Source: Acidobacteriota bacterium (GTDB lineage: Bacteria; Zixibacteria; MSB-5A5; GN15; FEB-12). From it: DNA of 64,000 nucleotides. The notes under the pieces are model-generated. The model was not told where the DNA came from, ran no database searches, and worked only from the letters and a program-made list of their open reading frames with translations. The DNA is taken from contig DATKXK010000005.1 in NCBI GenBank assembly GCA_035529075.1, forward strand, positions 1-64,000, read 5' to 3'. Positions within the stretch are counted from its first letter, which is position 1; the number at the start of each line of letters is the position of its first letter. Of this stretch, positions 1,286 through 19,305 are shown in pieces. Position numbers and translations under genes: made by a program.

Positions 1286-2590
1286 ATGAATGTACGAACG
1301 GCTACATACTTACTCGGCCTCGTAATTGCAGGATTATCCCTGTCCCACTGTGGCGGCAGCTCCGGTGGCGCCCGGGGTAACGGGGGCAACAACCTGGTAC
1401 CAGCAGTTGAGGCGGTTCAGGCCGATGTCGGCTCGCTCCCGCTGATCGAACGGTTGAGCGGAGTGGTCCGAGCGAAAAACCAGGTTGAAATCTACACTGA
1501 AATCAGCGCGACCATCATGCAGGTCCACGTGAATGACGGCGACGCCGTCACCGAGGGACAACCCCTGATTCAACTCCGTGACACCGAATTTCGCGAGCGG
1601 CTGAAACAGGCTCGGGCCGGCTACCAGATCGCCATCGCGCAAGCAAGCCAGGCAGAGATCCGACTGGGCAAGCTCCGGTCCGACCTCGAACGCGCCGAAA
1701 CCCTGGCCGAGAAACGGTTGGCCAGCGCGACTGAACTTGAGGCTGTTCAGACCGAGGCAGCCTCAGCCGAGGCCGATGTTGCCCTGGCCAAAGCCCGTGT
1801 CGAGCAGGCCCAGGCCACAATCGACGAGTACGAAGAGGCACTCGCCCGAACCGTGATCCGCGCCCCGGTCGCCGGAACGGTCGGTGATCGGAACGCCGAA
1901 ATCGGCATGTCTGTCAACGGCAACATCCGCCTGTTCACCCTTGGCCAACTCGACACGCTGCGGATCGGCATTATCCTGACCGATCACATGCTCAATTATA
2001 TCGAAGCCGGCCAGCGGGCCGAAATCCAGACTGCCAACCTGCCGTTCGGGTCGGCCGCCGCAAAACTCTCCCGCATCTCCCCATTCCTGCACCCGGTGAC
2101 TCACAGCACCGACGCCGAAATCGATCTGCCCAACCCCGACCATCAGCTCAACCCCGGCATGTTCGTCACTGTCGACGTGTACTATGGCGAAAGCGAACAA
2201 GCCACACTCGTGCCGCTGAGCGCGCTGTACGATAACCCTGCCACCGGGGCCACCGGCATCTATGTAACGGCCGACTCCCTTGCCGGGGAAGCGGTCGAGG
2301 CTCACGAAGGGGACAAGTCGATCGCTCTCACTGCCCCTGTAGCGTTTGAATTCGTCCCTGTCGATGTGATCGCCAGGGGGCGGACCACCGCCGGAATCAC
2401 CGGCGTGGAGCCGGGCAAGTGGATTATCACTCTCGGGCAGGACCTCCTCGGCGGCAAGCCGGGTGAAGCCCGGGTCCGAAAGGTGGATTGGAAATGGGTC
2501 GAACGCCTTCAGCACCTCCAGCGTGAGAATCTGCTCGAAGAGTTCATGGAACGCCAGCAGGAAGCCGCAACCGGCGAACCGACAACCTGA
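1286..2590 (+). CDS. RND efflux periplasmic adaptor (membrane fusion protein)
   Basis: 434 residues, normal for the HlyD/MFP adaptors that link an inner-membrane RND pump to an outer-membrane channel. The N-terminus is a lipoprotein-like signal with Cys22 in LSHC; His just before the Cys is unusual for a lipobox. A biotinyl/lipoyl-like half (about 65-100, with VHVNDGDAVTEGQPL), an Ala/Glu-rich coiled-coil hairpin (about 105-190), the second lipoyl half (RAPVAGTVGD, about 192) and beta-barrel domains follow in the usual order. It lies 43 bases before the pump gene on the same strand, so the two are surely co-expressed. No outer-membrane channel gene is next to them. The substrate cannot be told from sequence. 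Confidence 0.93.
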   Translation: MNVRTATYLLGLVIAGLSLSHCGGSSGGARGNGGNNLVPAVEAVQADVGSLPLIERLSGVVRAKNQVEIYTEISATIMQVHVNDGDAVTEGQPLIQLRDTEFRERLKQARAGYQIAIAQASQAEIRLGKLRSDLERAETLAEKRLASATELEAVQTEAASAEADVALAKARVEQAQATIDEYEEALARTVIRAPVAGTVGDRNAEIGMSVNGNIRLFTLGQLDTLRIGIILTDHMLNYIEAGQRAEIQTANLPFGSAAAKLSRISPFLHPVTHSTDAEIDLPNPDHQLNPGMFVTVDVYYGESEQATLVPLSALYDNPATGATGIYVTADSLAGEAVEAHEGDKSIALTAPVAFEFVPVDVIARGRTTAGITGVEPGKWIITLGQDLLGGKPGEARVRKVDWKWVERLQHLQRENLLEEFMERQQEAATGEPTT

Positions 2591-2633
2591 GCCGCTAATC
2601 ACTTAACCGGTCTGACATAGTGGTCACAGCACG

Positions 2634-5600
2634 ATGAATATCACGCGCCTCGCCGTCCATCGCCCGGTCGCCACCGCCATGGTGTTCCTGATCATTATCA
2701 TTCTGGGCGTCATGGCCCTCCGCTATCTCCCGGTCGATCTCCTTCCGCAGATCGAATACCCCAGACTGAGCATCTCGACCTCCTATCCCAATGTAGGCCC
2801 GGAGGAAATCGAGACTATCATTACCGACCGCATCGAAAATGCCGTCGCCAGCGTCTCTAATATCGAAGAGGTACGGTCCAGATCCTCGGAGGGCCGCAGC
2901 CGGGTGACACTTGAGTTCGCGCAGGGAACCGATATTGATGCCGCCGCTAACGATGTCCGCGCGGCCCTCGACCGTATTCGCGATGACTTTCCGCCTGAAG
3001 TTGATCTGCCCCGCATCTGGAAATTCGACCCCGACAACTTCCCGGTCGTCATTCTCGGCGCCCATTCCAGTCGCAGCCTCGATGAACTGACCCGCATCCT
3101 CGAGCGTGAGATCGCCCAGCGATTCGAGCAGATCCCGGGGGTCGGCTCGGTCGATGTATGGGGAGGCGTCTACCGTGAGGTTCAGGTTCGTCTCAAGCGC
3201 GACCGCCTCGCCTCGAGCCGTCTCTCCGCCGCCGATGTCCGACAGGCGCTGCAGCGGGAGAACGTGACGCTCCCTGGCGGCGACATGCGCGAGGGAATCA
3301 GCGACATGTATCTGCGCACCCGCGGCGAATTCCGGTCGCTCGATGAGATCGCCGGCACCATCATCACCGTGGTCGACGGCAAGCCGATCCGCGTTCGCGA
3401 TGTCGCCGAGGTTGTGGACGGCTACGAAGATATCAACCGGGTCGTTCAGATTGATGGCAAGCCGATGATCCGGCTGGGAGTTCAGAAACAGTCGGGGGCG
3501 AACACCGTCGCCGTCGCCGCGGAAGCCCGCAAAGTGATGGAGCAGATCAGCCGCGAGCGTGACGACCTGGAACTGCTGATCGTTATCGACCAGAGTCAGT
3601 TTATTCAGAATTCCATCAACAACGTGCAGAAGTCGGCGCTCTTTGGCGGTCTCCTTGCTATCTTCATTCTCTACCTCTTTCTGCGCAATGGTTCAACCAC
3701 CTTCATTATTGCCCTGTCGATTCCCATCTCGATCATTGCCGCCTTCGGCCTGCTCTTTTTCAATGGTCTGACGCTCAACCAGATGAGCTTCGGAGGGCTC
3801 GCACTCGGTATCGGGCTGATCGTAGACAACTCCATTGTCGTGCTCGAGAACATCATCCGCTTGCGGGAGAATCGTCACACGCTTGAGGAAAGCGCGCTGA
3901 CCGGAGCTAAGCAGGTGAGCGGCGCCATTGTCGCATCCACCCTGACCACGATGGTGATCTTCCTTCCCGTGGTCTTCATGCAGACTATCTCCGGCATGCT
4001 CTTTCGGGAACTCGCGCTCGTGGTCGTTTTTGCTTTGCTCTGCTCGCTGCTCGTGGCGTTAACCCTGGTGCCGATGTTGGCCAGCCGCTTCCTCCACCTG
4101 CGGGCCGGCGAGAAGACGACCGAGAACGAGAACTCACGGCTCGGTCGCTGGTTCATTTCCCTCCAGGAGGCCTACTCACGCCTTCTGGCGGCGGCGATCC
4201 GCCACAAGAAAATTGTCTTTGCCACGACCGGAGTCCTGCTGGTAATCACATTCCTCCTCTGGCCCCTCCTGCCGATCGAACTCGCACCTCAGACCGATGC
4301 CGACGAGATCGGGGTGGACTTGCAGATGGCGCAGGGAACGAATATCGCGGTCGTGAACGAATACCTCCAGGAACTGGACCGGATGGTTCGGACAGTCACC
4401 CCCATGGATCAGGTCCGCCATCTGACCGCCGAAATCCGTGGCGGCGACGCCGAGGTGGAAATCGCTCTTAAGGGGGCTGACGAACGCACCATGAACAGTT
4501 TCGTCCTCGCCGATCAAATCCGCCAGGCTGTTGTAGGTAAGATACCGGGCGCAGACATTCGCGTGTCGGCCCAGTCCGGTCTCTGGATGTTGCAGCGGCT
4601 GTTCGGATCGGGCGGGGGCGATGCGGTCGAGGTCGAACTGCGCGGTTATGATCTGGCGATCGCCGATCGCATTGCCAATGACCTCAAGCAAATCATGGAT
4701 CAGGCGCCGGAAGTGGCCGATGTCCGGGTGAGCCGCCGCGAGGGGCGCCCCGAGCAGAACCTGATCGTTGACCGCGAGAAAATCGCCGATCTAGGTCTCT
4801 CGGTCCGACAAGTCGCCGAGGTGATCCAGACCAACATCGGCGGCAGCCGCGCCGGCGTCTACCGTGAAGGGGGAGAGGAGTTTCCTATCACGGTGCGACT
4901 CCAACCCGAAGACCGGCTCAGCACGCTCGATCTCAGCAACGTCTCAGTGAGAACCGGTGCCGGCCAGACCCTGCCGGTCTCGGCCGTGGTGCGGACTGAA
5001 CGCCGCCGCGGCCCGACGGATATCGAGCGAATCAACGGCCGGCGCGTCACCTACATCTCCGCCAACCTCGAAAGCGGCGCCGCGCTCGGGGACGTGGTCG
5101 AGGATCTGCAAGCCAGGTTGCGGGATTACGCGCTCCCCGCCGGTTTCTCCCTGGTGTTCAGCGGCGAGTACGAGGAACAGCAGAAAGCGCAGCGCGATTT
5201 CCTGCTGTCGATCCTCATGGCCGTGACCCTCATTTACATGGTCATGGCGGCCCAGTTCGAACGGTTCCTCGACCCGCTCATTGTCATGGTCACTGTGCCT
5301 TTGGCGTTTGTCGGCGTGGTGCCGACCCTGCTCCTGACCGGTACGACCCTCAACGTGCAAAGCCTGATGGGTATCGTCATGCTTATCGGGATCGTGGTCA
5401 ACAACGCCATCGTGCTTGTCGACTACATCAACATGATGCGCCGTGAACAAGACCTTTCCATACAGGACGCGGTTCTGCAATCCGGACGGCTGCGGCTGCG
5501 GCCGATCCTGATGACCACCTCGACGACCGTGTTGGCGATGCTGCCCCTGGCGTTCGGCGCCGGCGCCGGCGGCGAGATTCAGGCAGCCCTGGCCCGCTCG

Positions 5601-5732
5601 GTGATCGGCGGCCTGAGCATCTCGGCCCTCATCACCCTGATCCTGATCCCGGTCGTGTACATAACGGTCCATAACGCAATGGCCCGCGTCCGCAAACCGG
5701 CCGTCCGGGCCGTTCAACCCGCTGCGGAGTGA
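2634..5732 (+). CDS. RND-family efflux pump, inner-membrane subunit
   Basis: 1032 residues, the full length of an AcrB/MexB/CusA-class proton-driven exporter. TM1 (MVFLIIIILGVMALRYLP) is followed by a large periplasmic loop, then TM2-6 from about 335. The TM4 proton-relay segment reads GLALGIGLIVDNSIVVLEN; the Asp-Asp pair of AcrB (VDDAIVV) is Asp-Asn here. A second periplasmic domain and TM7-12 repeat the layout, with GIVVNNAIVLVDYIN in TM10, as in the hydrophobe/amphiphile branch found outside Proteobacteria. A heavy-metal (CzcA) role is less likely because the hallmark DFG-x-x-x-DG motif is not seen. It works with the adaptor just upstream. The ribosome site is weak, which would fit coupling to the adaptor. 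Confidence 0.95.
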   Translation: MNITRLAVHRPVATAMVFLIIIILGVMALRYLPVDLLPQIEYPRLSISTSYPNVGPEEIETIITDRIENAVASVSNIEEVRSRSSEGRSRVTLEFAQGTDIDAAANDVRAALDRIRDDFPPEVDLPRIWKFDPDNFPVVILGAHSSRSLDELTRILEREIAQRFEQIPGVGSVDVWGGVYREVQVRLKRDRLASSRLSAADVRQALQRENVTLPGGDMREGISDMYLRTRGEFRSLDEIAGTIITVVDGKPIRVRDVAEVVDGYEDINRVVQIDGKPMIRLGVQKQSGANTVAVAAEARKVMEQISRERDDLELLIVIDQSQFIQNSINNVQKSALFGGLLAIFILYLFLRNGSTTFIIALSIPISIIAAFGLLFFNGLTLNQMSFGGLALGIGLIVDNSIVVLENIIRLRENRHTLEESALTGAKQVSGAIVASTLTTMVIFLPVVFMQTISGMLFRELALVVVFALLCSLLVALTLVPMLASRFLHLRAGEKTTENENSRLGRWFISLQEAYSRLLAAAIRHKKIVFATTGVLLVITFLLWPLLPIELAPQTDADEIGVDLQMAQGTNIAVVNEYLQELDRMVRTVTPMDQVRHLTAEIRGGDAEVEIALKGADERTMNSFVLADQIRQAVVGKIPGADIRVSAQSGLWMLQRLFGSGGGDAVEVELRGYDLAIADRIANDLKQIMDQAPEVADVRVSRREGRPEQNLIVDREKIADLGLSVRQVAEVIQTNIGGSRAGVYREGGEEFPITVRLQPEDRLSTLDLSNVSVRTGAGQTLPVSAVVRTERRRGPTDIERINGRRVTYISANLESGAALGDVVEDLQARLRDYALPAGFSLVFSGEYEEQQKAQRDFLLSILMAVTLIYMVMAAQFERFLDPLIVMVTVPLAFVGVVPTLLLTGTTLNVQSLMGIVMLIGIVVNNAIVLVDYINMMRREQDLSIQDAVLQSGRLRLRPILMTTSTTVLAMLPLAFGAGAGGEIQAALARSVIGGLSISALITLILIPVVYITVHNAMARVRKPAVRAVQPAAE

Positions 5733-7627: not shown

Positions 7628-8872
7628 TTAGATAACTCGTCGCAGCGCCAGGGCTACTTCCCTGGTAATACCGGTGGGCGACGACAGCGAGAGTCTGACC
7701 ACGGCACCCTTTTCTCTAAGGATTCTGCGGAGTTCATCTCTGCCGATCTCACCTAATGGTCGTCCGTTGATGCTATGAATAACATCCCCCGGACTCAATT
7801 GAGCTTCCTCCGCAGGTGAACCGGGGAGAATGCGTTCTACTTTCAAGGTTCCCTCATCAGTCTTACTGAATTCGATCCCCGACATATTGTATTCAAACGG
7901 TTCGGCGAAGTGACTGTTGGGGACGAGAATCATACGCTTATTCCTGTAATCAAAAGTGACATTGAACCTCCTTAATACGCCATTGCCGAGGTTGCCGTGC
8001 TTCTCCATTGCCGAAGGCCCGTGGCGCGGACCGGTCTGGAACGATGACATTACGCCGTGCAGTTCCAGGTCGCCGAGGCGGAGTGTGTTGATTCTTCCGA
8101 CCTCACCATAGATTGGGCCGCTGACGGTTTTCCCGAGCAGTGTTTCAATAGAATTATCTGGTGGCACGATCGCCTCATGAGTTCCGACGTTCAACGAAAC
8201 GGCGTGAGACGCACCCAGATCTACGACCAATTCCATGGGGGCCACCGCCCCGCCGACCATTTCAGCTGAGCACTTCAGAAACGGGAGCCCGTTTCGCATC
8301 AACAGAGGCAGCACCTCGGCATTGGGCGGCATCTGGAACTTATCAGGTTCCACCAGAATGATCTCGTATTTGTCGAAGTCAATTGTTATGGTAAACTGAC
8401 TGAATAATTCAAACCCGATGATGCCATCGTCATCTCCGAGCATCGCCCCGAGATTGCCAGCCTCCGGCTCAACTATTGCCGACAAGTCAGTCAACTCCAG
8501 TCCGGGAAGGCTGAGGCTAACGCCCTGAGCGACGCTGGCCATTAGTGGCTCCTGGTTCCCGGGGTCGCCAGGCACGGGCATTTCGGCTACGAAGTTCATG
8601 CCCAATTGGTCCTTGTTTCCCTTCCCGATCATGATCAGGCCAGGCATCGGCATCCCAGTGTCAAGGATGAGCCGAACATTCGCCTTTCCATTTACCTTAG
8701 CGGCAAAAACGACATAGCCCAGATCCGGTGCGAAGGGGATTCTGGCTGTACCATCCTCAGACAAGAAGATGTGCTTCCCGGGTCCAGGTCCAGGACCCGG
8801 ACCCTGTGCCTGCAGTGACATACTGCACACCAGAAGCAACATGAACAATGTTGTCACACCGTGACTCTTCAT
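7628..8872 (-). CDS. Secreted retropepsin-like aspartyl protease with C-terminal PDZ domain
   Basis: 414 residues. A signal peptide (1-22) is followed by a Gly-Pro run (23-32). The first pepsin/retropepsin-like half carries the aspartyl motif LILDTG (Asp71-Gly73). A second copy of the fold follows with VVDLGAS, where Thr is replaced. A PDZ domain occupies about 325-414 (LPGSPAEEAQLSPGDVIHSI). Related proteins are probably exported or periplasmic proteases or substrate binders; with only one canonical DTG, activity would need a dimer or the two halves together. A strong GGAGG precedes the ATG by 8 bases. A similar gene is 9235-10521, so this is a paralogue pair. Confidence 0.85.
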   Translation of the reverse strand: MKSHGVTTLFMLLLVCSMSLQAQGPGPGPGPGKHIFLSEDGTARIPFAPDLGYVVFAAKVNGKANVRLILDTGMPMPGLIMIGKGNKDQLGMNFVAEMPVPGDPGNQEPLMASVAQGVSLSLPGLELTDLSAIVEPEAGNLGAMLGDDDGIIGFELFSQFTITIDFDKYEIILVEPDKFQMPPNAEVLPLLMRNGLPFLKCSAEMVGGAVAPMELVVDLGASHAVSLNVGTHEAIVPPDNSIETLLGKTVSGPIYGEVGRINTLRLGDLELHGVMSSFQTGPRHGPSAMEKHGNLGNGVLRRFNVTFDYRNKRMILVPNSHFAEPFEYNMSGIEFSKTDEGTLKVERILPGSPAEEAQLSPGDVIHSINGRPLGEIGRDELRRILREKGAVVRLSLSSPTGITREVALALRRVI

Positions 8873-9234: not shown

Positions 9235-10521
9235 TCAGATGATGCGCCTGAGTATCAATGATACTTCCTTCTCCTCGCTGTCGCGCTCTATGCGCACATT
9301 CACTACCGCACCCTCCTGTTTGAACATTGAGCGCAGATCGAGACTGCCATAGTCAGTGATCAACTTGTCGTTAATCCTGAGTATTTTGTCGCCTACCTGC
9401 AAACCTGCCTCCTCGGCAGGAGAACGTTCGTGAACCTGTTGAATTATGGCGTAACCCTGCAACGCAACTGCCATTACAAAGCCTGACATATCGTATTCGA
9501 AAGGAGTATCGAATGAACTGTTGGGCTCGACAAACAGCCGTCGCCGATGATAATCAAAGACAAGATTGAAACGTGACAGCAGCTCCAGTCCGATCATCGC
9601 CTCATAAATCGCCTGATCACGATGTTCCTCGGATACGTAACTTGCAATCAGATCGTTTATCCGATAACCCCCGATATCAATTTGCGGGAGTCGGGCGACA
9701 AATCCGCGAGTTTCCACGCGCTGTATATTGAAGCCGAGGCTGGCGGGTAGTTTCATTTCAGGCAGAGTGATATTATGTTCACCGCCAACTACAAGCTGTA
9801 GCCGATCGTTATAGCCAAGATCCATCAACAGCTTCATTGATATACTGCGTCCGTCCTGCATCTGCAGTGTCGCCGGAATTGACCAGGGACCAAATCCCAG
9901 GGGCTGCCATGGGATTGCGACGCCCTTGCCTCCATATTCGTAATTTCCAGGCTCCCTCAGAGTTATGATCATCTTGTCGAAATTTATGTCCACCACGAAA
10001 TGCCTGAAAAAGGTGGCGCTGATCTGGCCTACGCTGCCCGACCACATGCTGCTATTGCCCGAACTGTAAGGCGTAACGACCGCAGTTTGTTCTATGAATG
10101 TCACACCGGGCAGTCCGACGGTAATTCCGGATGCAGTTTTGGAAACGAGCTTCTCCGAATCTTCATTGCCGACCCCGATTTCACCGTCATACACTAAACC
10201 CAGAGAATCAACTTCGGGACTGCCCCAGAAAAGGAGCTGGTCCCACATGTATCCGTCATCGAGGAGCATGTGAACCTGCCGACCGTTCACCTCACACAGA
10301 AAACGAATGTCGCCCCTGTATATATCAAAAGGGAATTGTATCGTGCCGTCATCTGCCAATATTCTATAAGCGCCGGGCGGCGGGCTTGTCTCAGCGCTGT
10401 CGCCAGCGCCGGTGTTACCAGACGCCAGAATAACGCCCGGTAGAATGAGCAGAATAGTCATACTATATATTCGAACCCATAGGGCAAGGGAGGGTGAGTG
10501 TGTGGTGTCATTTGATTTCAC
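9235..10521 (-). CDS. Retropepsin-like/PDZ protein with altered catalytic motif
   Basis: 428 residues from a GTG start at 10521, preferred because AAGGAG stands 9 bases upstream and the product then begins with a signal/anchor segment (about 15-35). The domain order copies the 7628-8872 protein: an aspartyl-like half, a second half (LLMDLGYN) and a PDZ domain (about 340-428, HERSPAEEAGLQVGDKILRI). The first motif reads LLDDGY (Asp88-Asp89-Gly90) where the paralogue has DTG, so proteolysis is doubtful; it may bind peptides instead. The start overlaps the TetR stop by 14 bases, so the genes are translationally coupled. A longer ATG start at 10539 is possible but has no ribosome site. Confidence 0.8.
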   Translation of the reverse strand: MKSNDTTHSPSLALWVRIYSMTILLILPGVILASGNTGAGDSAETSPPPGAYRILADDGTIQFPFDIYRGDIRFLCEVNGRQVHMLLDDGYMWDQLLFWGSPEVDSLGLVYDGEIGVGNEDSEKLVSKTASGITVGLPGVTFIEQTAVVTPYSSGNSSMWSGSVGQISATFFRHFVVDINFDKMIITLREPGNYEYGGKGVAIPWQPLGFGPWSIPATLQMQDGRSISMKLLMDLGYNDRLQLVVGGEHNITLPEMKLPASLGFNIQRVETRGFVARLPQIDIGGYRINDLIASYVSEEHRDQAIYEAMIGLELLSRFNLVFDYHRRRLFVEPNSSFDTPFEYDMSGFVMAVALQGYAIIQQVHERSPAEEAGLQVGDKILRINDKLITDYGSLDLRSMFKQEGAVVNVRIERDSEEKEVSLILRRII

Positions 10522-11155
10522 TGTGACCGACTCCTTCATTCTTAATGCCGCGTGCGAAAATATCCAGATACGTTCTGACGTACTCCTCCGGCTCGAAGTA
10601 TGCAAACGAATAGGTTGATGAGTGCGCTCTGTTGACAATGCTCCGAAAAGAATACAGAAAGTGACTTATTGCCAGATCAACATTGAGATCGGGACGCAGA
10701 GAGCCATCGCTTAGACCGAGATGGAAAATCCTGCGAAGCCCTTCGGCCAATTCGTTGTTTATGGTCTGGAAAGACGCAAATATGTCATCGGTAATCAGTT
10801 TTCGATCGATTCCTTTGAAATCCCAGTAGAGCTGTAAACGAATTGAGCTGCGGTGCCGGCAGGTAAACGAATAGAGAGACTCACCCCATTTGATTATCTT
10901 TTGAAGTCCAGTGTCCGCCGTGGCCAGTTCCCTTTTCTGTTCGGTCCAGCGGGCTGAAAGATCTTCAATAAGGATCGACAGACTTATCTCGTCTCGGCTC
11001 TTGAAGTAGGCATAGAGAGTCCGCCGCGTGTATTCAGCGGCCGAGGCAATATCGTCCATACTGGTATTCTCGATACCTTTTTCATCAAAGAGTTGGCGGG
11101 CAGCTTCTAATATGAATTTCTTTCGGATCTCACGTTCGATGGCTTTTCGAGACAT
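10508..11155 (-). CDS. TetR-family transcriptional regulator
   Basis: 215 residues. The N-terminal TetR helix-turn-helix (about 12-58, with ARQLFDEKGIENTSMDDIA and YTRRTLYAYFKSRDE) is canonical; the C-terminal ligand domain is all-helical and diverged, so the inducer cannot be predicted. It is the first gene of an operon with the PDZ protein 9235-10521 and may control it. Upstream, ATGTAACAT is a small palindrome near a possible TATGAT -10; either could be part of an autoregulatory site. Confidence 0.9.
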   Translation of the reverse strand: MSRKAIEREIRKKFILEAARQLFDEKGIENTSMDDIASAAEYTRRTLYAYFKSRDEISLSILIEDLSARWTEQKRELATADTGLQKIIKWGESLYSFTCRHRSSIRLQLYWDFKGIDRKLITDDIFASFQTINNELAEGLRRIFHLGLSDGSLRPDLNVDLAISHFLYSFRSIVNRAHSSTYSFAYFEPEEYVRTYLDIFARGIKNEGVGHSEIK

Positions 11156-11533: not shown

Positions 11534-11727
11534 TCAGTTTCCTTTGTGGCTGATCAGCTCCTCGGGAGTCAGGTCCTTCAGACCCTCCCTTTGTAGTCGC
11601 CTCACGAACGATGGAGTCACATTGTGATTATGCAGCTCGATGAGAATCGATGGAGCCAGGTTGTCATAACCCAACTCAGACATTTGGCGAACGTAACTTG
11701 GAGTAACCTCATTTGCCAGCTTTTTTT
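11534..11727 (-). pseudogene. Out-of-frame C-terminal extension of the M56 gene
   Basis: Right after the A7 run on the minus strand (T7 at 11721-11727) the next frame continues for about 60 residues with two more repeats of the same VTP-x-(Y/F)VR kind (VTPSYVRQMSELGYDNL, VTPSFVRRLQREGLKDL) and ends at TGA-like stop 11534-11536. Removing one A would fuse it cleanly to the M56 protein. It is therefore the true gene end, lost by a one-base frameshift, a sequencing error in the homopolymer, or reached by slippage on the A-run. Confidence 0.8.
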
Positions 11728-13670
11728 GCCAGCATTTCAATTATGCCGTCAATGTCCTTATATCCCCGTTCTTTCATCTCCTCTACATCTTTCTGGGTGA
11801 TATCGAAACCACACACCCACACCATATTATCTTCGGACACATCCATAAAGCGATGCCGGTAACAATCCTCGAAATCGCCGACATCTAGATTGAATGCGCG
11901 CAAGGTGACAAAGCTCTTGTATGACAGATCGCGGAAGCCGGCGTCGCGGAATTCTTCCACAAATTTGGGGGTTATGCCGTGTATTCTTGCCGAGATTAGC
12001 TGGTCAGCCGTGAGATGTCCAACTCCCAATCTTTCGAATTCTCGCGCGTCATCCGGAGTGACGCCCTGGACCCGCATTGAAAGCAACCTATCGTAGGGCA
12101 AGTCGGTGTACCCGGTCTTGCGGAACTCTTCTATATACTCCGGAGTTATACCTTGTGATCTTGCCGAGATTAGCTTATCCACGTCGAGACTAAGATGACT
12201 ATAACCCTCCAATCCGGATATGAACTCCCGGGAAACATCAAATATGGCAGTGGCAAGCACTTTCTCCTTATCATCGCCACGAAGTCCGTACGGGTTCATA
12301 AAGTGCACGAATTCGGAGTCAGGCTGAAAGTACCATTCGCCCTCTCCCCAACAATTCCGGCCGTTTCGTCCCAACCTTCCGTCCAGGAAGAAAGTGCCTG
12401 CATCGCGGATGAGCTGAAAGGTTTGTTGGCCGTCACCGATCTTGTCGAAGAACTCATTTCGATCGAAACTGAACGCTATCCGTGAGTCGCGGCCTCGATT
12501 GAAACGAATATAGAGTTTATCGTGGTCTGACTCGATTTCCCACTCGCCACGCAGATCGCCGGGTCCCGGATCGAATGTTTGCGTCGCTTCGATTTTCTCG
12601 CTGGCCTGCACCGCCGAATCGTTCGAGCCGCCGAACGATCCGAGAAACACAGCAATGATAGGAATGACCACGAGCATACCGGAAATGCTCAGCACCGATG
12701 AATAGAAGCGTGGTTTTGTCGCGCCGACTATCCGCCGAATGCGACGCCTGAGCGGCGTGCCGGTAAGGGCGGTACCAAAACTTGTCTGAAACATTCTTAA
12801 CTCCTCCAAATTAGCCAATGCGCGGGCATACCTGAGTCGGTTGCCTGTTCTGAGAATGGCCGTGTCATCGCAACAATCCTCCCGCTCGGTCCTGATCTGG
12901 CGGGAAAGCCACCAGATAGCCGGATTGAAGAAGAACAGCGTTTCCACAGCCGTCTGTACTATATTGACGAGGACGTCGTAACGTCGAACGTGAGCTAGTT
13001 CGTGTACAAGGATCATCTCAATCTCGGAAGGATCGAGCGAAGCAAACATACTTACAGGAACCAGTATCACCGGTTTCATCCAGCCTACCACACAGGGCAC
13101 TTTGACCAGAGAACTGCTCAGAAAGGAAACGAGTCGTCTGACCCTGAATTCATCGCACAACTTCTCGAACCGCGCCTGCCACTCGGGCGGTACCGAGGAG
13201 GTGCCTCGCCTGACAAAGCCACGGGCACGGCGCCAGCCAAGAAGATGGTAGACGGAAAACAGCATCACGCCCGCGATCCAGATCATAAAGATGTACCGAC
13301 TGATCGAAGGATGTTTCCACCAGCGGTTTGATGAAGATACACCGTTCGTGGGAGCGGGGGTGTTAATTGTCGCGCCAACGTCCGAACTGCCCTCTCCACT
13401 GGCCAATTCACCTGTCACTGCGGAAACGTGTCTTGCCGGACCGTACCCGTCAGGCCGAACTGAGACGGCCGTCACGGCTGCAGCCACGATAACGGCTGCC
13501 ATGGCGCTGCAAGAAACGGCGTAACGAATCTTTGCGTTACTGCTTCTCAACAGGGATAGCGCGACGGCTGCAAGAATCCCGATGAGAATCCCCTGCCAGA
13601 GTGAATGCATCAGAATAGTCGCAACAGTGCGGATACACGGCTCCAGATCAATTAATTGACTCTCGATCAT
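11709..13670 (-). CDS. blaR1: M56-family (BlaR1-like) membrane metalloprotease/sensor with helical-repeat tail
   Basis: 653 residues. Four N-terminal TM segments flank an M56 zinc protease domain with VHELAHVRRYD (about 227-237) and the downstream Glu in EREDCCDD. In BlaR1/MecR1 this domain ends signalling by inactivating the BlaI-type repressor. After TM4 (about 340) comes a short extracellular domain, then tandem helical repeats of about 28 residues (G(I/V)TP-x-x-x-EEF-x-x-x-G-x-x-DL), common in M56 proteins of Acidobacteria-like genomes, in place of a penicillin-binding domain. The ligand is therefore probably not a beta-lactam. The ATG overlaps the BlaI stop (ATGA). The frame closes just after an A7 run while the repeats continue in another frame. 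Confidence 0.88.
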   Translation of the reverse strand: MIESQLIDLEPCIRTVATILMHSLWQGILIGILAAVALSLLRSSNAKIRYAVSCSAMAAVIVAAAVTAVSVRPDGYGPARHVSAVTGELASGEGSSDVGATINTPAPTNGVSSSNRWWKHPSISRYIFMIWIAGVMLFSVYHLLGWRRARGFVRRGTSSVPPEWQARFEKLCDEFRVRRLVSFLSSSLVKVPCVVGWMKPVILVPVSMFASLDPSEIEMILVHELAHVRRYDVLVNIVQTAVETLFFFNPAIWWLSRQIRTEREDCCDDTAILRTGNRLRYARALANLEELRMFQTSFGTALTGTPLRRRIRRIVGATKPRFYSSVLSISGMLVVIPIIAVFLGSFGGSNDSAVQASEKIEATQTFDPGPGDLRGEWEIESDHDKLYIRFNRGRDSRIAFSFDRNEFFDKIGDGQQTFQLIRDAGTFFLDGRLGRNGRNCWGEGEWYFQPDSEFVHFMNPYGLRGDDKEKVLATAIFDVSREFISGLEGYSHLSLDVDKLISARSQGITPEYIEEFRKTGYTDLPYDRLLSMRVQGVTPDDAREFERLGVGHLTADQLISARIHGITPKFVEEFRDAGFRDLSYKSFVTLRAFNLDVGDFEDCYRHRFMDVSEDNMVWVCGFDITQKDVEEMKERGYKDIDGIIEMLAKKAGK

Positions 13671-14050
13671 TTTGACCCCGCCTCCATTTCATCCAGCATA
13701 CGTCTGATTTCGGCAAGTTCCTCAGGCGAGACCGGACGCGCGGCCAAGGCCTGGGCGACAAGTTTGCCGGTAGAATTGTCGAATACCCTGGCAAGAAGGT
13801 GCCTCACGTATTTACGATGAACCTGTGCGTTGGATGCGACTGCCCGGTAAACGTGGGCTCTGTGTCTTTCATCCCGCTTGACAAGCCCCTTCTCGGCCAT
13901 GATCTGCATCAGTTTGAGGATGGTAGTATATCCCCGCGGCGGGTTGTCCTTAAGAAGGGCATGTACTTGGCCGACCGTGCACGGGCCATATTCCCACAAC
14001 ACTTTCAACAATTCCAGCTCGGCGTCTGTCGGATTCTGCTTATGGACCAT
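13667..14050 (-). CDS. blaI: BlaI/MecI/CopY-family repressor
   Basis: 127 residues from ATG 14050, chosen because GGAGAG lies 6 bases upstream; an upstream ATG at 14065 overlaps that site. The winged-helix domain (about 5-75, with TDAELELLKVLWEYGPCTVGQV beginning it and YTTILKLMQIMAEKGLV as recognition region) is typical of BlaI, and a C-terminal dimerisation helix follows. The protein would repress its own operon until the M56 partner is activated. The overlap of four bases with the M56 gene shows one operon. A good palindromic operator lies 40-56 bases upstream. Confidence 0.92.
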   Translation of the reverse strand: MVHKQNPTDAELELLKVLWEYGPCTVGQVHALLKDNPPRGYTTILKLMQIMAEKGLVKRDERHRAHVYRAVASNAQVHRKYVRHLLARVFDNSTGKLVAQALAARPVSPEELAEIRRMLDEMEAGSK

Positions 14051-14089
14051 CACAACTCTCCACATGGTTCAAAGCTGTCAGTAGATGAG

Positions 14090-14512: not shown

Positions 14513-15130
14513 ATGAGAAAGCATCCCCACCACAAGGCTTTTGAAGTAGTGAGATCCGGATACGATCGGCTAGGTAATCTCTATACCGCGGAAAGAGAAA
14601 AGGCTGACAATTGGAAGGAAGTGAAGGCGTTTACCTTGCGGCTGCCCGCCAACGGAAGAGTCCTCGACGCCGGATCTGGAACAGGTATACCGATAGCTCG
14701 GCACCTGGTTCAAGCCGGATTCGATGTCGTAGGCATCGATTTTTCGGAGACAATGGTAGCGGTTGCACGCGAAAACGTGCCGGACGCCACTTTTCAGCAG
14801 ATGAATATGACCGCCATCGATCTTCCGCCGGAATCGTTCGACGGCGTGATTTCCACCTATGCTATTATTCATGTACCAAGGGAGGCGCATGCGAGCATCT
14901 TTCGATCGTTTCACTCGATCCTGAAACCACGGGGCGTGATGCTTGTCTCGGTAGCCAGTTGGGCCTGGGAGGAGTTCGCCGAATACATGGGCGTGGAAAT
15001 GTTCTGGAGTCATTTTGGCCCGGACAAGACCCAATCACTCATCACTGAAGCCGGCTTTGATATCGAGTTCGGTCGCGATGTGGAGACCGGTGGCGAGAAA
15101 CACCATTGGGTTCTGGCCCATAAACGTTAG
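14513..15130 (+). CDS. Class I SAM-dependent methyltransferase
   Basis: 205 residues. The SAM-binding motif I reads VLDAGSGTGIPIA (about 50-62), motif II ends in VVGIDFS with the acidic ribose contact, and the post-motif region (MTAIDLPPESFDGVIS) fits the Methyltransf_11/25 group of small-molecule methylases. No substrate domain is recognisable. It is a single gene bracketed by element A copies 6 and 7. It is unrelated in detail to the O-methyltransferase pair at 23084 and 31648. Confidence 0.9.
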   Translation: MRKHPHHKAFEVVRSGYDRLGNLYTAEREKADNWKEVKAFTLRLPANGRVLDAGSGTGIPIARHLVQAGFDVVGIDFSETMVAVARENVPDATFQQMNMTAIDLPPESFDGVISTYAIIHVPREAHASIFRSFHSILKPRGVMLVSVASWAWEEFAEYMGVEMFWSHFGPDKTQSLITEAGFDIEFGRDVETGGEKHHWVLAHKR

Positions 15131-15142
15131 ACCTAATCGATT

Positions 15143-15240
15143 ACTTTCCAACGACTTCCGCTCGCGGTGGAATATCGCACTACGATCTTAAAGTTGAATA
15201 CTACAAAAGTTTGGGGAGAGTGATACTGGGGCCGCTTTTA
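15143..15240 (+). repeat. Element A, copy 7
   Basis: TTTCCAACGACTTCCGCTCG starts 12 bases after the methyltransferase stop, followed by GTTGAATACTACAAAAG and the core TTGGGGAGAGTGATACTGGG-GCCGC. It lies between convergent genes. Confidence 0.8.
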
Positions 15241-15365
15241 AGCCCTTATTCCCGGCCATAAATTGTATGTTTGGAATAGTCCGCGTTCTGTCTATCATGT
15301 TCAAGCTCTCGTTTGCCTGGGCCAACAAGCAAGCATGGGCGAATCCACCGACTTTTGAGCAAACA

Positions 15366-15438
15366 TCCAGTTGCGAAAGTCGTCTCGCAGGGGACGGCAT
15401 TGATATCCACCCCGTCGGAAGATGGGGTCATTTTGTGG
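15366..15438 (+). repeat. A-like variant with terminator-like end
   Basis: CCAGTTGCGAAAGTCGTCTC-GCAGGGGACGGC is the shorter variant seen also at 6064 and 29163. It continues into TTGATATCCACCCCGTC and a CCCC...GGGG hairpin followed by TCATTTTGTGG, like block IV of element A. Confidence 0.6.
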
Positions 15439-15515
15439 ATGGCTGCGAGATTCTGTGAAATCAGCGGGGTGTTCATCAACAGCTGAGGAAGAAGCACACC
15501 CATCTAAGATGCTGC

Positions 15516-16991
15516 TTACTGCCAGTCCTCGGATTCGTGGCATGCCCCTGGTCCTGAACAGGTGCCGTTTTGATAGCTGATCTGTCTGGTGCCGAAAGCA
15601 ATCGTTATCTGGCCATCGACATGCACTGTTTTGCCGATTATCGCCAGCCCGGCATCGACGGTCGCCGAGTGACATTCATAGCAGGCCACATTTTCCTCGC
15701 GCACATGTTTTTGGTGTCGACCGGACAGGTCACCCGGATTGGCGCCGTCATCATGGCACGAACCGCAGGCCGCCTGGGCCGGGGCGGTCCATATCGGTCC
15801 GTTGGCTGGATAGCCACCCGCGAAATTCCCGTGGCAGTAGGTGTTGCTGCATACACCGGTGGCCCGATTCCACTGCGAGGAGCCGTCGGCGAGTTCACCC
15901 CAGGTGACTTCGGCGGTCGAATCAATTTCCCAGTGTCCGGGACTGGTCAGGCGGGCCGGGACCAGGTGGCATTCGGTGCACGAGAAAGCGTCGGCGACAT
16001 AACCGCCCTCCACGTGTGTCATATGGGCTCCCACCGCCAGAGTAGCCGCCGAGGTCTCTCCGCGTAGACCTTGCGGCGGTGCCCCCGTCAGGTTGTGCAC
16101 GCCGCCATGGCAGTGGGTGCAGGCGTCCGAGCCTGTGCCATGGCACTCATCGCAGCGCGGTTGGTCCGGTGTCGAGACGTTGGTGACACCGTTGACGTGC
16201 AGAGACGGCATCACGATAGTCAACGACGAGTCCACTACCTCAGCGTGACAGTCGGCGCAAACCAGGCCGCTGGGGGTGAGGTGGATCTGGTGGACGAGCC
16301 CTAGGTCGGCCGGATTGGCCCCGCCATCGTGACACGACCCGCACTCCGCCTGTCCCGGAGCAGTCCATTCGGGCGAGTTACTGTGGTAGCCGCCGTTGAA
16401 ATTTCCGTGGCAGTAAGTGCCGGAACAGGATCGTGCGGTCCGGTCCCAGACAGCACCTCCGCTGTCGGCAAATCCTTGCCACGTGATTTCAGCGATCGAA
16501 TCGAGAGTACCGCTGCCGAGATCCAGATGATACGGCTCAAGCATATTGCCTGGTACCAGGTGACATGACCGGCATTCCACGATCGCCGAACGCGGTGTCC
16601 CCGACAGGTGCGTCGTGTGGGCTCCCACGGCGACAGTGGTATCGTCCGTCTCATCGCGGAGGCCGAATGGCGGAGCGCCGGTATTGTTATCCTGGCCACC
16701 GTGGCAGGTGATGCAGGTACCGCTGGCCAGGTGGCAATCAACGCACGAAACACCGACTTTTCCACCTCGGAAATAATTGCCGTGGCACGTGGCACAACTT
16801 ACCGTGCCGTTGATCCGCGCCACCCTACTGTGAAAGTCTGGCGAGAGGGAGTTCATCCAGGAGGCGGGATGCGCGCCGGGCAACTGGCTGACTGCCCGCT
16901 GGTCGCTGCATCCACAGGTCAGCAGAATGAAACTCAGGAACGGCATCATGGTCTGGCAGACTCTGTAAACAATGTATCCCATTTTGGTCAC
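15516..16991 (-). CDS. Multihaem c-type cytochrome with CxxxxCH/CxxCH repeats
   Basis: 491 residues from a GTG at 16991 (ATG at 16982 is equally possible). A hydrophobic signal ends in a Cys-rich TCGC segment, perhaps a lipobox. Haem sites in order: CATCH, CVDCH, CITCH, CRSCH, CSGTYCH, CGSCH, CADCH, CDECH, CTHCH, CTECH, CSNTYCH, CGSCH, CYECH, and a final CSGPGACH with five residues between the Cys. So 13 normal or CxxxxCH sites plus one odd site. The protein is an internal duplication: CHGN(F)-GGY...W-AP-Q-x-CGSCHD occurs twice. This is the Geobacter-type CxxxxCH...CXXCH repeat of exported electron-transfer proteins. It starts 8 bases after the second cytochrome, in the operon with the beta-barrel. 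Confidence 0.92.
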   Translation of the reverse strand: MTKMGYIVYRVCQTMMPFLSFILLTCGCSDQRAVSQLPGAHPASWMNSLSPDFHSRVARINGTVSCATCHGNYFRGGKVGVSCVDCHLASGTCITCHGGQDNNTGAPPFGLRDETDDTTVAVGAHTTHLSGTPRSAIVECRSCHLVPGNMLEPYHLDLGSGTLDSIAEITWQGFADSGGAVWDRTARSCSGTYCHGNFNGGYHSNSPEWTAPGQAECGSCHDGGANPADLGLVHQIHLTPSGLVCADCHAEVVDSSLTIVMPSLHVNGVTNVSTPDQPRCDECHGTGSDACTHCHGGVHNLTGAPPQGLRGETSAATLAVGAHMTHVEGGYVADAFSCTECHLVPARLTSPGHWEIDSTAEVTWGELADGSSQWNRATGVCSNTYCHGNFAGGYPANGPIWTAPAQAACGSCHDDGANPGDLSGRHQKHVREENVACYECHSATVDAGLAIIGKTVHVDGQITIAFGTRQISYQNGTCSGPGACHESEDWQ

Positions 16992-16999
16992 TGGTTTCT

Positions 17000-18064
17000 T
17001 CAGTCTCCATTACCGTGGCAATAGCCACAGAAGCCCGTTCCGGAACGCTCGGTACTAGTATGGCAGGCAAAGCAAAAATAACCGTCGTCGTCGTGCCATG
17101 GTCCGTGGCCGTCGAAACGGGCCGGATCGGCCGAGTGGATCCGTGGATCGGTCCCGCGCACACCATCGATGTCACTATGGCATCCGGGGCGGGCACAGGT
17201 GGGATCATCGACGTCGTGGCAGGAAGCGCAGTTTTCGATATCGGTTCGCGCCGCGCGACCGTGGTCGATTCGCCAGTTCATGGTCGAGTGAGCCAGCGGC
17301 ATCCGGTTCTCGCTCTCGTGACAATCGTTGCAGAATGATCTTCGATCATGGCAGCGTGCGCAATCGGCCTCTTTACCCTGGGCGTCCAGACCGTGAGTGA
17401 ATCGGTAGTTCAGATCATGGATATTGCCGGTCTGGTTGTCGCCACGATGGCAGTCCAGACAGTAAACCTCCTGCTGGTGACAGGCCCGGCACCAGTCTGG
17501 TTTCAGCGTGGCCTGTTCGGCGTGCTGGTGCCGCCAGCCGATCGGGTGAATGTCCGCAAGGACTACCTTGTCGGCGTGACAGAGACGACACCCCCCGGTG
17601 GCATGGAGGCCGTCATGGCAACTCATGCACAGCGGCTTGCCCGGCCGGCCTGGCTGGTGCGGAATTTCTTCGTCTACTGCAGACAGAACGTGACAGGTCT
17701 GGCAGTCGGCCGTGAGATCCAAATGCAACTTATGATTGAACAGCACCGGCGACTCAGTCCTGGCAGCTGGCGATGGGTTATCGGGATCGCGGTGGCACTG
17801 GCCGCAACTCTCGTCATTCTCAACGTCGTGACAGTCGGCGCACACGTCCATTGATGGCAAGCCGTGATCGTCTGAGGAGGCGCTGGACGGAATCTGGGCG
17901 TGGCAAGTGATACAATCGATCCCTTGATCCGTCACGTGCAAAGGGTGCGAAAAAATCAGTTCAGTTGCCGGCGCCTGCCGGAGCGTGTCCGCCATCATGA
18001 CAGACGTTCCGGCGAGAATCACCAGGGTCAGACAGGCAGGCAGACCAAGACGTCCAATTTTCAT
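17000..18064 (-). CDS. 14-haem periplasmic c-type cytochrome
   Basis: 354 residues with a signal peptide (1-25, ...SVMMA). Fourteen haem motifs: CITCH, CADCH, CGQCH, CQTCH, CMSCH, CRLCH, CRACH, CLDCH, CARCH, CNDCH, CASCH, CARPGCH (the four-residue spacer type), CFACH and CGYCH, with many free His (FSHPLH, FNHKLH) as distal ligands. One haem per about 25 residues means a haem wire with little globular fold, as in cytochrome c7/NrfB-like and porin-cytochrome conduit proteins. The start overlaps the barrel stop (ATGA), so the two are tightly coupled. The likely role is electron transfer across the outer membrane. Confidence 0.93.
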   Translation of the reverse strand: MKIGRLGLPACLTLVILAGTSVMMADTLRQAPATELIFSHPLHVTDQGIDCITCHAQIPSSASSDDHGLPSMDVCADCHDVENDESCGQCHRDPDNPSPAARTESPVLFNHKLHLDLTADCQTCHVLSAVDEEIPHQPGRPGKPLCMSCHDGLHATGGCRLCHADKVVLADIHPIGWRHQHAEQATLKPDWCRACHQQEVYCLDCHRGDNQTGNIHDLNYRFTHGLDAQGKEADCARCHDRRSFCNDCHESENRMPLAHSTMNWRIDHGRAARTDIENCASCHDVDDPTCARPGCHSDIDGVRGTDPRIHSADPARFDGHGPWHDDDGYFCFACHTSTERSGTGFCGYCHGNGD

Positions 18065-19305
18065 TTTGACGCCTCCGACCTGGCCGGACCAACCCTAAAA
18101 CCTTTCGCCAGTTGTACGAATATGCGTTGATCGCTTTTGTCCACTGGGTTTCTCAGGTATTGGCCCTCGACCCTGACCGTAACCGCCCGGCCCGGCCGCC
18201 ACAGGAAACCGGCACTCGACGAATAGGCATCAATTCTGTCAGGGGTTTCTGGTTGGATAAGATAGCGCGAGACAAAGGCCGACGTGTATAACTCGAGATT
18301 ACGCAAGATATTCACATGAACCTGTCCCTGAAAGCCGTCACTTTCACCTCCATACCCATCACGGTGGTGCCAGGCCATCATGAAATGCGCGGTCCTCAGG
18401 CCGAATACCGACCGCCAGGCGTCGTCGCCGTCAAGCAGTTCACGGTGAACCTGAGCCAGCACGCGGACGTCACGCCACACCGCGCGTGTGACTTCCGCCC
18501 GTATCCCCTTATAAGCATCGGCATCGATCAAACTGAATACGGTGTTGCCATCGACCGATGGCTTCCGCCAGTGAACCTCGGCTGACAGGTACCACTTATC
18601 CGGGCGCGCCGTTGCGCGGGCCAGAACGCCGGCCATGTCCCGATCAAGAAGGTCATACGAAACCCGGGTGTAGAATTCGGTTCGTCGAATCTCCCCCCAG
18701 GCATCGATACCTGCCCGGTGTCGACTGACCGAGCCATCCGACGTTCGCGCCAGCCAGTTCAAGCCCAGTCTAAACGACCGAGATCGCGCGTATTCAACGC
18801 GGCTTCCGAACGCGCCGTGACCGCTGAGAGACTGGATTTTGTCCGGTGTCTCATGCGAAACCCCGGCGCCGCCGAAGAGATCAATACTGACCGATTTGAG
18901 GATTCGTAGCCTGGCCCGGAGGCCATCCACCACGGAACTGCCGAGGGTATTATAAACAAACTGGCGCCCGGCGTAGATTGTGCTGCCGGCCGGATAGCCC
19001 CGCAGGCTGAGATAGAAGTTATATATGTAAGTCTGGGATGCGCCTGGTTCTCCGGCCGCCAGATCGTCGGACCGTCGCAGGTTGATGTGAAGACCAAGCG
19101 CCCGCGTCTGGTCTCCATGCCACAGAGTGGCAGTAGAATTGAATCCGACATAGGTGCGCCAATGCGTGTCGTCGGAACGCTCTGAGCCGTACAGGCTGGA
19201 GTTCACTCGCCCGGTCAGTTCAACCGCCTCACTGGAAACTGATAGGAAACACAGGGAAACAAGACACGAAAGAAAAACGCCGCACTGTAGAATTCGGTGT
19301 CTCAC
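18061..19305 (-). CDS. Outer-membrane beta-barrel, putative porin of an electron conduit
   Basis: 414 residues from GTG 19305, chosen because AGCAGG lies 6 bases upstream and the product then starts with a classical signal peptide (MRHRI..., cleavage near SSEA|VEL). An upstream ATG at 19377 would add 24 residues without a signal. The mature chain alternates polar and aromatic residues throughout (for example TYIYNFYLSLRGY, KWYLSAEVHW), with Arg/Asp-rich turns, and ends in a strand (RIFVQLAKGFRVG). That is a 16-20 strand barrel pattern. It is the first gene of the operon with two multihaem cytochromes, as in porin-cytochrome conduits, although no MtrB/OmbB signature is obvious. Family assignment by sequence alone is weak. 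Confidence 0.8.
   Translation of the reverse strand: MRHRILQCGVFLSCLVSLCFLSVSSEAVELTGRVNSSLYGSERSDDTHWRTYVGFNSTATLWHGDQTRALGLHINLRRSDDLAAGEPGASQTYIYNFYLSLRGYPAGSTIYAGRQFVYNTLGSSVVDGLRARLRILKSVSIDLFGGAGVSHETPDKIQSLSGHGAFGSRVEYARSRSFRLGLNWLARTSDGSVSRHRAGIDAWGEIRRTEFYTRVSYDLLDRDMAGVLARATARPDKWYLSAEVHWRKPSVDGNTVFSLIDADAYKGIRAEVTRAVWRDVRVLAQVHRELLDGDDAWRSVFGLRTAHFMMAWHHRDGYGGESDGFQGQVHVNILRNLELYTSAFVSRYLIQPETPDRIDAYSSSAGFLWRPGRAVTVRVEGQYLRNPVDKSDQRIFVQLAKGFRVGPARSEASK

What the first reader, a model, noticed from the sequence alone, without database searches (positions are those of the whole stretch)
15516..19305. Beta-barrel plus 14-haem plus CxxxxCH cytochrome operon: a possible new electron conduit
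Seen: three minus-strand genes joined by a 4-base overlap and a gap of 8, with about 27-28 haem sites in two proteins and a barrel-like first gene. Known: porin-cytochrome complexes (MtrCAB, OmbB-OmaB-OmcB, Ext) join a barrel with a periplasmic and an outer multihaem cytochrome. Inferred: this operon does the same with other families (a 14-haem wire of CXXCH and a Geobacter-type CxxxxCH surface protein). In an FCB-type genome that would be little described.
Basis: partly seen in the sequence, partly recalled or inferred. Interest (0 to 1): 0.7.

Follow-up and report, generated by a model that had tools for sequence, protein, structure and literature searches.

The report
Zixibacterial outer-membrane electron conduit, modular cytochrome
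Three adjacent genes in an uncultured FCB-group bacterium (most likely Zixibacteria) probably build an electrical conduit through the outer membrane, a known kind of system; its outermost cytochrome is a modular wire that relatives lengthen in steps of six haems, from 8 up to 68.

Summary
In detail: three minus-strand genes (18061-19305, 17000-18064, 15516-16991), one 4-base overlap, one 8-base gap, 28 haem-type sites (mid protein 13 CXXCH + 1 CX4CH; third 11 CXXCH + 2 CX4CH + 1 CX5CH). Gene 1 is predicted with confidence to be a 22-strand outer-membrane barrel. The trio, in this order, recurs across Zixibacteria and in a second bacterial group, with changing flanking genes. The mid cytochrome keeps its haem layout. 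The third gene is a conserved lipoprotein whose haem count obeys 8+6n in 17 of 17 homologues (8, 14, 20, 26, 68); all 33 six-haem modules carry six invariant extra histidines, as six bis-His haems would need. Some lineages drop or replace the surface protein; some put the barrel-cytochrome pair beside ccm genes or a Rieske/cytochrome b complex. Best reading: a porin-cytochrome (Pcc) conduit. Mtr models do not match it. Homology to OmbB/OmaB could not be tested. New here: the strict modular rule, including a 68-haem surface lipoprotein. Direction of flow and acceptor are inferred, not shown.

The parts
18061..19305 (-). Gene 1: outer-membrane beta-barrel (414 aa, signal peptide, 22 predicted strands)
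   Evidence: AlphaFold2 on 14 homologues, mean pLDDT 84.4, 22 strands; Foldseek matches are outer-membrane barrels; homologues in the same position in the trios
18061..18064 (-). 4-base overlap (ATGA) of gene 1 stop and gene 2 start
   Evidence: sequence
17000..18064 (-). Gene 2: periplasmic 14-haem cytochrome (354 aa, 38.9 kDa; 13 CXXCH + 1 CX4CH; 12 invariant non-motif His)
   Evidence: N-terminal half similar to a cytochrome c7 chain (PDB 3ov0, E 5e-26)
17177..17197 (-). CX4CH haem site CARPGCH in gene 2, present in all 11 aligned homologues
16992..16999 (-). 8-base gap between genes 2 and 3
   Evidence: sequence
15516..16991 (-). Gene 3: surface lipoprotein cytochrome (491 aa; 14 CH-type haem sites; TIGR01904 CxxxxCH/CxxCH domains)
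   Evidence: TIGR01904 E 6.7e-23, PF09698; fits the 2222422(222422)n-x layout with n=1
16908..16916 (-). Lipobox cysteine(s) of gene 3 (LLTCGC-S); a lipobox cysteine is conserved in homologues
15981..16574 (-). The single complete six-haem module (198 aa) of gene 3
   Evidence: 33 homologous modules of 191-203 aa, 6 haem motifs + 6 invariant His each
16407..16427 (-). First CX4CH site of gene 3 (CSGTYCH)
15831..15851 (-). Second CX4CH site of gene 3 (CSNTYCH)
15537..15560 (-). C-terminal CX5CH site (CSGPGACH); its spacing varies from CX4CH to CX8CH in homologues

Best explanation
The operon encodes a porin-cytochrome (Pcc-type) electron conduit. The 22-strand barrel sits in the outer membrane (predicted). 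The 14-haem cytochrome threads into it from the periplasm as the trans-membrane wire (inferred). The lipoprotein cytochrome is anchored on the cell surface and passes electrons on to, or takes them from, something outside (inferred). The surface protein is built from a fixed 8-haem frame into which 0 to 10 copies of a ~195-residue, six-haem module are inserted (shown for homologues), so evolution changes the reach or capacity of the outer wire without touching the membrane-spanning part. Electrons most likely flow outward from the quinol pool: in one lineage the barrel-cytochrome pair follows genes for a 4-haem cytochrome, a Rieske protein, a cytochrome b and a 9-haem cytochrome, and this genome has a CbcL-like 11-haem/cytochrome b fusion elsewhere (gene content shown, electron path inferred).
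For: Barrel fold. Haem sites and signal/lipoprotein N-termini. The mid gene lies directly downstream of the barrel, in the same order, in the relatives examined, with differing outer flanks; the profile of the mid protein hits 30 of 132 genomes of the phylum in 22 of 85 genera and recurs with barrel and lipoprotein in a second GTDB phylum. Barrel and mid-cytochrome distances correlate (r 0.90, 0 of 2000 permutations; shared descent inflates this). Surface lipoprotein lost or replaced while the pair is kept, as reported for Geobacter conduits (PMC6148476). 17 of 17 lipoproteins fit 8+6n haems, and 33 of 33 modules have six invariant extra His. Pair next to ccm genes or a Rieske/cytochrome b complex. 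The own genome has CcmF/CcmC-type assembly genes.
Against: No biochemical evidence. The structure of the 14-haem protein could not be predicted (pLDDT 40), so insertion into the barrel is not shown. No complex was modelled. Nothing in the operon itself fixes the direction of flow or the acceptor. CX4CH haem attachment is inferred here, though demonstrated for CX4CH elsewhere (MmcA, PMC11024163); attachment at the CX5-8CH terminal site is untested.
Confidence: 0.85

Rival explanations
1. The same conduit works inward: it takes electrons from Fe(II), a partner cell or a mineral and feeds them to the periplasm (as proposed for MtoAB/PioAB).
For: Porin-cytochrome pairs without a surface cytochrome resemble the iron-oxidation systems (f16 loci); some authors assign both iron oxidation and reduction genes to Zixibacteria (PMC8478452).
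Against: The f19 operons place the pair after a Rieske/cytochrome b complex, which normally oxidises quinol; the own genome has a CbcL-like quinol-side protein. Neither is decisive: both can in principle run in reverse.
Confidence: 0.2
2. The surface lipoprotein is mainly an electron store (capacitor) or a metal/oxyanion reductase rather than a wire; haem number sets charge capacity.
For: Haem number varies from 8 to 68 at nearly constant residues per haem (32-38); capacitor roles are proposed for haem-rich PCC3 proteins (PMC10734462).
Against: Every module has one conserved extra His for each haem, which speaks against an open catalytic haem; storage and conduction are not exclusive.
Confidence: 0.15
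3. The barrel is an ordinary transport porin that happens to be next to two periplasmic cytochromes; there is no trans-membrane wire.
For: Foldseek resembles many transport barrels; no Pfam or NCBIfam porin-cytochrome model matches.
Against: The barrel family was found next to the 12-14-haem family in the Zixibacteria loci examined where contig ends allow and in most loci of the second group; the third protein is a lipoprotein with a conserved lipobox.
Confidence: 0.05

Closest known systems
Pcc systems of Shi et al. 2014 (OmbB-OmaB-OmcB; especially IALB_1839-1838-1837 of Ignavibacterium album)
   Same: Barrel of 18-22 strands, periplasmic cytochrome of 5-14 haems (I. album: 14 haems, 400 aa), outer-membrane cytochrome with CXXCH and atypical CX3-15CH motifs; surface cytochrome may be absent (PMC4245776).
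   Different: That survey found no atypical motif in any Pcc periplasmic cytochrome; here the mid protein has an invariant CX4CH. Here the surface protein is a modular series (8+6n). Direct sequence homology could not be tested.
MtrCAB / MtoAB / PioAB
   Same: Same design: barrel, periplasmic wire, optional surface lipoprotein.
   Different: MtrB barrels are larger (26-28 strands) and MtrA has 10 haems; the PF11854 (MtrB/PioB) and TIGR03508 (DmsE/MtrA family) models do not match this barrel and mid protein, while they do pick up a different cluster in the same genome.
PCC3 of iron oxidisers (He et al. 2017; Gallionellaceae 10-35 haems, elsewhere up to 85)
   Same: Barrel + periplasmic + extracellular cytochrome with very variable haem number by repeat gain and loss (PMC5566968, PMC10734462).
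   Different: PCC3 has a 5-helix inner-membrane protein in the cluster and a 21-27-haem periplasmic protein; neither is present here.
ExtABCD, ExtEFG and other Geobacter conduits
   Same: Conserved barrel/periplasmic core with frequent replacement of the surface lipoprotein (PMC6148476).
Cytochrome c7 chain of PDB 3ov0
   Same: N-terminal half of the mid protein is c7-like (E 5e-26).
   Different: The best stretch covers only about residues 32-164; the C-terminal half has no close solved relative.

Membership tests
Pcc (porin-cytochrome, Shi et al. 2014) | porin-like outer-membrane protein of 18-22 strands | tested here: met
   22 strands in the AlphaFold2 model, pLDDT 84; range from PMC4245776
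Pcc (porin-cytochrome, Shi et al. 2014) | adjacent periplasmic cytochrome with 5-14 haems | tested here: met
   14 CH-type sites, signal peptide, adjacent in the trios
Pcc (porin-cytochrome, Shi et al. 2014) | outer-membrane (lipoprotein) cytochrome in the cluster (optional) | tested here: met
   lipobox + 14 sites; surface location itself not testable here
Pcc (porin-cytochrome, Shi et al. 2014) | sequence homology to OmbB/OmaB or IALB_1839/1838 | not testable with these tools
   no Geobacter or Ignavibacterium genome could be reached, and no library model of these porins matched
Mtr (MtrCAB/MtoAB/PioAB) | barrel of the MtrB/PioB family (PF11854) | tested here: not met
   no match in any of 14 homologues, while PF11854 marks another barrel in the same genome
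Mtr (MtrCAB/MtoAB/PioAB) | decahaem MtrA of the DmsE family (TIGR03508) | tested here: not met
   no match; 14 haem sites, not 10
PCC3 | conserved 5-helix inner-membrane protein in the cluster | tested here: not met
   genes flanking the trio are unrelated and variable
TIGR01904 / PF09698 CxxxxCH-CxxCH domain cytochromes | profile score above the curated cut-off | tested here: met
   80.3 bits against 27; 39.5 against 21.7

The most novel reading that the evidence does not exclude
The surface cytochrome is a length-tunable molecular wire: a fixed 8-haem frame into which 0-10 six-haem bis-His cassettes are inserted (8 to 68 haems), in a conduit lineage of FCB bacteria that arose or diversified separately from Geobacter Pcc and moves between lineages as a unit.
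Probability: 0.4. Interest if true: 0.65.

Novelty: new variant of a known kind. Interest (0 to 1): 0.45.

Why it matters
It gives an uncultured group often proposed to cycle iron a concrete, testable electron conduit, and a natural series of homologous surface cytochromes that differ mainly in the number of six-haem cassettes. Such a series (8, 14, 20, 26, 68 haems) would let one measure directly how wire length affects rate, reach and charge storage, which is hard to do with unrelated cytochromes.

Tried and rejected
Mtr membership was rejected: its barrel and decahaem models do not match. Sequence search of the barrel against the PDB: nothing; third protein against the PDB: nothing significant. 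AlphaFold2 of the 14-haem protein: useless (pLDDT 40). Weak hits of the mid protein in many relatives (about 215 aa, five haems, in two read loci next to a ~990-aa gene) were taken to be Alternative Complex III subunit A and set aside. Plasmids: only weak c3-type hits. Homology to OmbB/OmaB could not be tested because no Geobacter or Ignavibacterium sequence was reachable; the 14 control genomes have no TIGR01904 protein. An attempt to centre a survey on a locus id failed and was done through its genome handle.

Full report
What is there. The middle protein has 13 CXXCH and one CX4CH; the third has 11 CXXCH, two CX4CH and one CX5CH: 28 haem-type sites in all. They are the only two frames in the window with two or more CXXCH sites. 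The genome is about 3.04 Mb in 21 contigs and rated complete. Named relatives found by the middle protein are almost all Candidatus Zixiibacteriota, an FCB phylum, so the host is most likely a member of that phylum; the window's own record is unnamed.

The barrel. Pfam and NCBIfam give no significant family for gene 1, nor does Pfam for any of 14 homologues. AlphaFold2 on the alignment of 14 homologues gives a signal helix and 22 strands at mean pLDDT 84; Foldseek's best matches are outer-membrane barrels. That is within the strand range given for Pcc porins (18-22) and below MtrB (26-28) (PMC4245776, PMC12133095).

The middle cytochrome. Eleven homologues keep all 14 motifs, including the CX4CH, and 12 further invariant histidines. 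The N-terminal half resembles the c7 chain of PDB 3ov0 (E 5e-26). Its structure could not be predicted without haems, so its place inside the barrel is inferred from known conduits.

The surface cytochrome. The third protein passes the TIGR01904 and PF09698 cut-offs and is the only TIGR01904 protein of the genome. A lipobox cysteine is present in all homologues read. In 17 homologous loci the order of haem motifs is always 2222422, then n copies of 222422, then one last site of variable spacing (2 = CXXCH, 4 = CX4CH), with n = 0, 1, 2, 3 or 10: 8, 14, 20, 26 or 68 haems. The 33 internal modules are 191-203 residues long and each has six motifs and six invariant extra histidines, which fits six bis-His haems and argues that the CX4CH sites carry haem. 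[quoted passage not shown] The 68-haem gene (L070, contig JAKAKI010000017.1, genome G130) rests on one metagenome assembly.

Conservation of the unit. Among the window genome and 60 relatives, 14 genomes have a strong barrel homologue and 13 of them a close mid-cytochrome homologue beside it or split over a contig end; in the fourteenth (G049) the barrel lies at the end of its contig. The lipoprotein follows wherever the contig continues. Genes outside the trio differ from genome to genome, which sets the limits of the unit. With a profile of the middle protein, 30 of 132 genomes of the phylum are positive. Variants: a 12-haem middle protein with an 8-haem lipoprotein (f7); a 14-CXXCH middle protein with a different haem-rich lipoprotein upstream (f12); a 13-haem middle protein, no surface cytochrome, followed by cytochrome c maturation genes (f16); and, in f19, the pair after a 4-haem cytochrome, a Rieske protein, a cytochrome b and a 9-haem cytochrome. 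Replacement of the surface lipoprotein on a conserved core is the pattern reported for Geobacter conduits (PMC6148476).

Beyond the phylum. A second GTDB phylum, reached through a record titled Chitinivibrionia (NCBI Fibrobacterota), has the middle protein in 26 of 80 genomes at E <= 1e-20 (the weaker hits cover only the c7-like half and may be other cytochromes). Twelve of the strong loci were read: most show barrel, 12-haem protein and a lipoprotein with the same N-terminal signature (HP..W....DFHG) and 6 to 26 haems. One genome (G211) has a trio very close to the Zixibacterial one. The trees of barrel and middle protein do not follow the host families and place G211 and the f19 genome with 68 haems among the other trios; transfer of the trio as a unit is likely but was not tested against a species tree.

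Mechanism. Quinol-side protein, periplasmic carriers, 14-haem wire through the barrel, lipoprotein outside, then an external acceptor such as Fe(III), Mn(IV), humics or a partner cell. The gene content is shown; the order of transfer and its direction are inferred from the f19 operons and from a CbcL-like 11-haem/cytochrome b fusion in this genome. The reverse direction is the main rival.

Known or new. The general kind is known. Pcc with a 14-haem periplasmic protein and an atypical outer cytochrome is described from Ignavibacterium (PMC4245776); Pcc-like operons were reported from Zixibacteria (PMC7005843); surface cytochromes of variable and very high haem number are known from PCC3 (PMC5566968, PMC10734462) and an 86-haem protein from Desulfuromonas (PMC12133095). 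What I did not find described in seven literature searches is the strict six-haem cassette rule with CX4CH motifs, and the occurrence of this trio across FCB lineages. That library lacks most subscription papers, so the claim is limited.

Noticed in passing
G000:C4 about 14,750-18,500 (L142:6778-10497): A second outer-membrane conduit in the same genome: DmsE-family decahaem cytochrome (TIGR03508 E 8e-48, below cut-off), a 521-aa barrel with a borderline MtrB/PioB match, and a 6-haem lipoprotein.
   Followed up: partly
G000:C10 517,150-519,220 (L139:9151-11220): A 690-aa protein joining 11 haem motifs to a cytochrome b561-type domain (CbcL-like), close to the cytochrome c maturation genes.
   Followed up: partly
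G000:C6 about 78,700-83,700 (L141:2709-7720); L050:3372-8237: A peptidyl-prolyl isomerase gene followed by 26-haem and 16-haem cytochromes; the same kind of cluster lies directly upstream of the trio in genome G055.
   Followed up: partly
L070:3443-10201 (JAKAKI010000017.1): A lipoprotein with 68 haem motifs (56 CXXCH, 11 CX4CH, 1 CX5CH), ten tandem six-haem modules.
   Followed up: yes
L165-L175 (second GTDB phylum): Homologous lipoproteins with only CXXCH motifs and 6, 8, 16 or 26 haems, which may mean a ten-haem repeat there instead of six.
   Followed up: no
window 11709-14065: A membrane M56-type peptidase gene and a BlaI-type repressor gene overlap by 4 bases, like a BlaR/BlaI sensor pair (by eye from the translation only).
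   Followed up: no
window 1286-5732: A periplasmic-adaptor-like gene followed by a 1032-aa RND-type efflux pump gene, with two possible outer-membrane-factor paralogues at 7628-8872 and 9235-10638 (by eye only).
   Followed up: no
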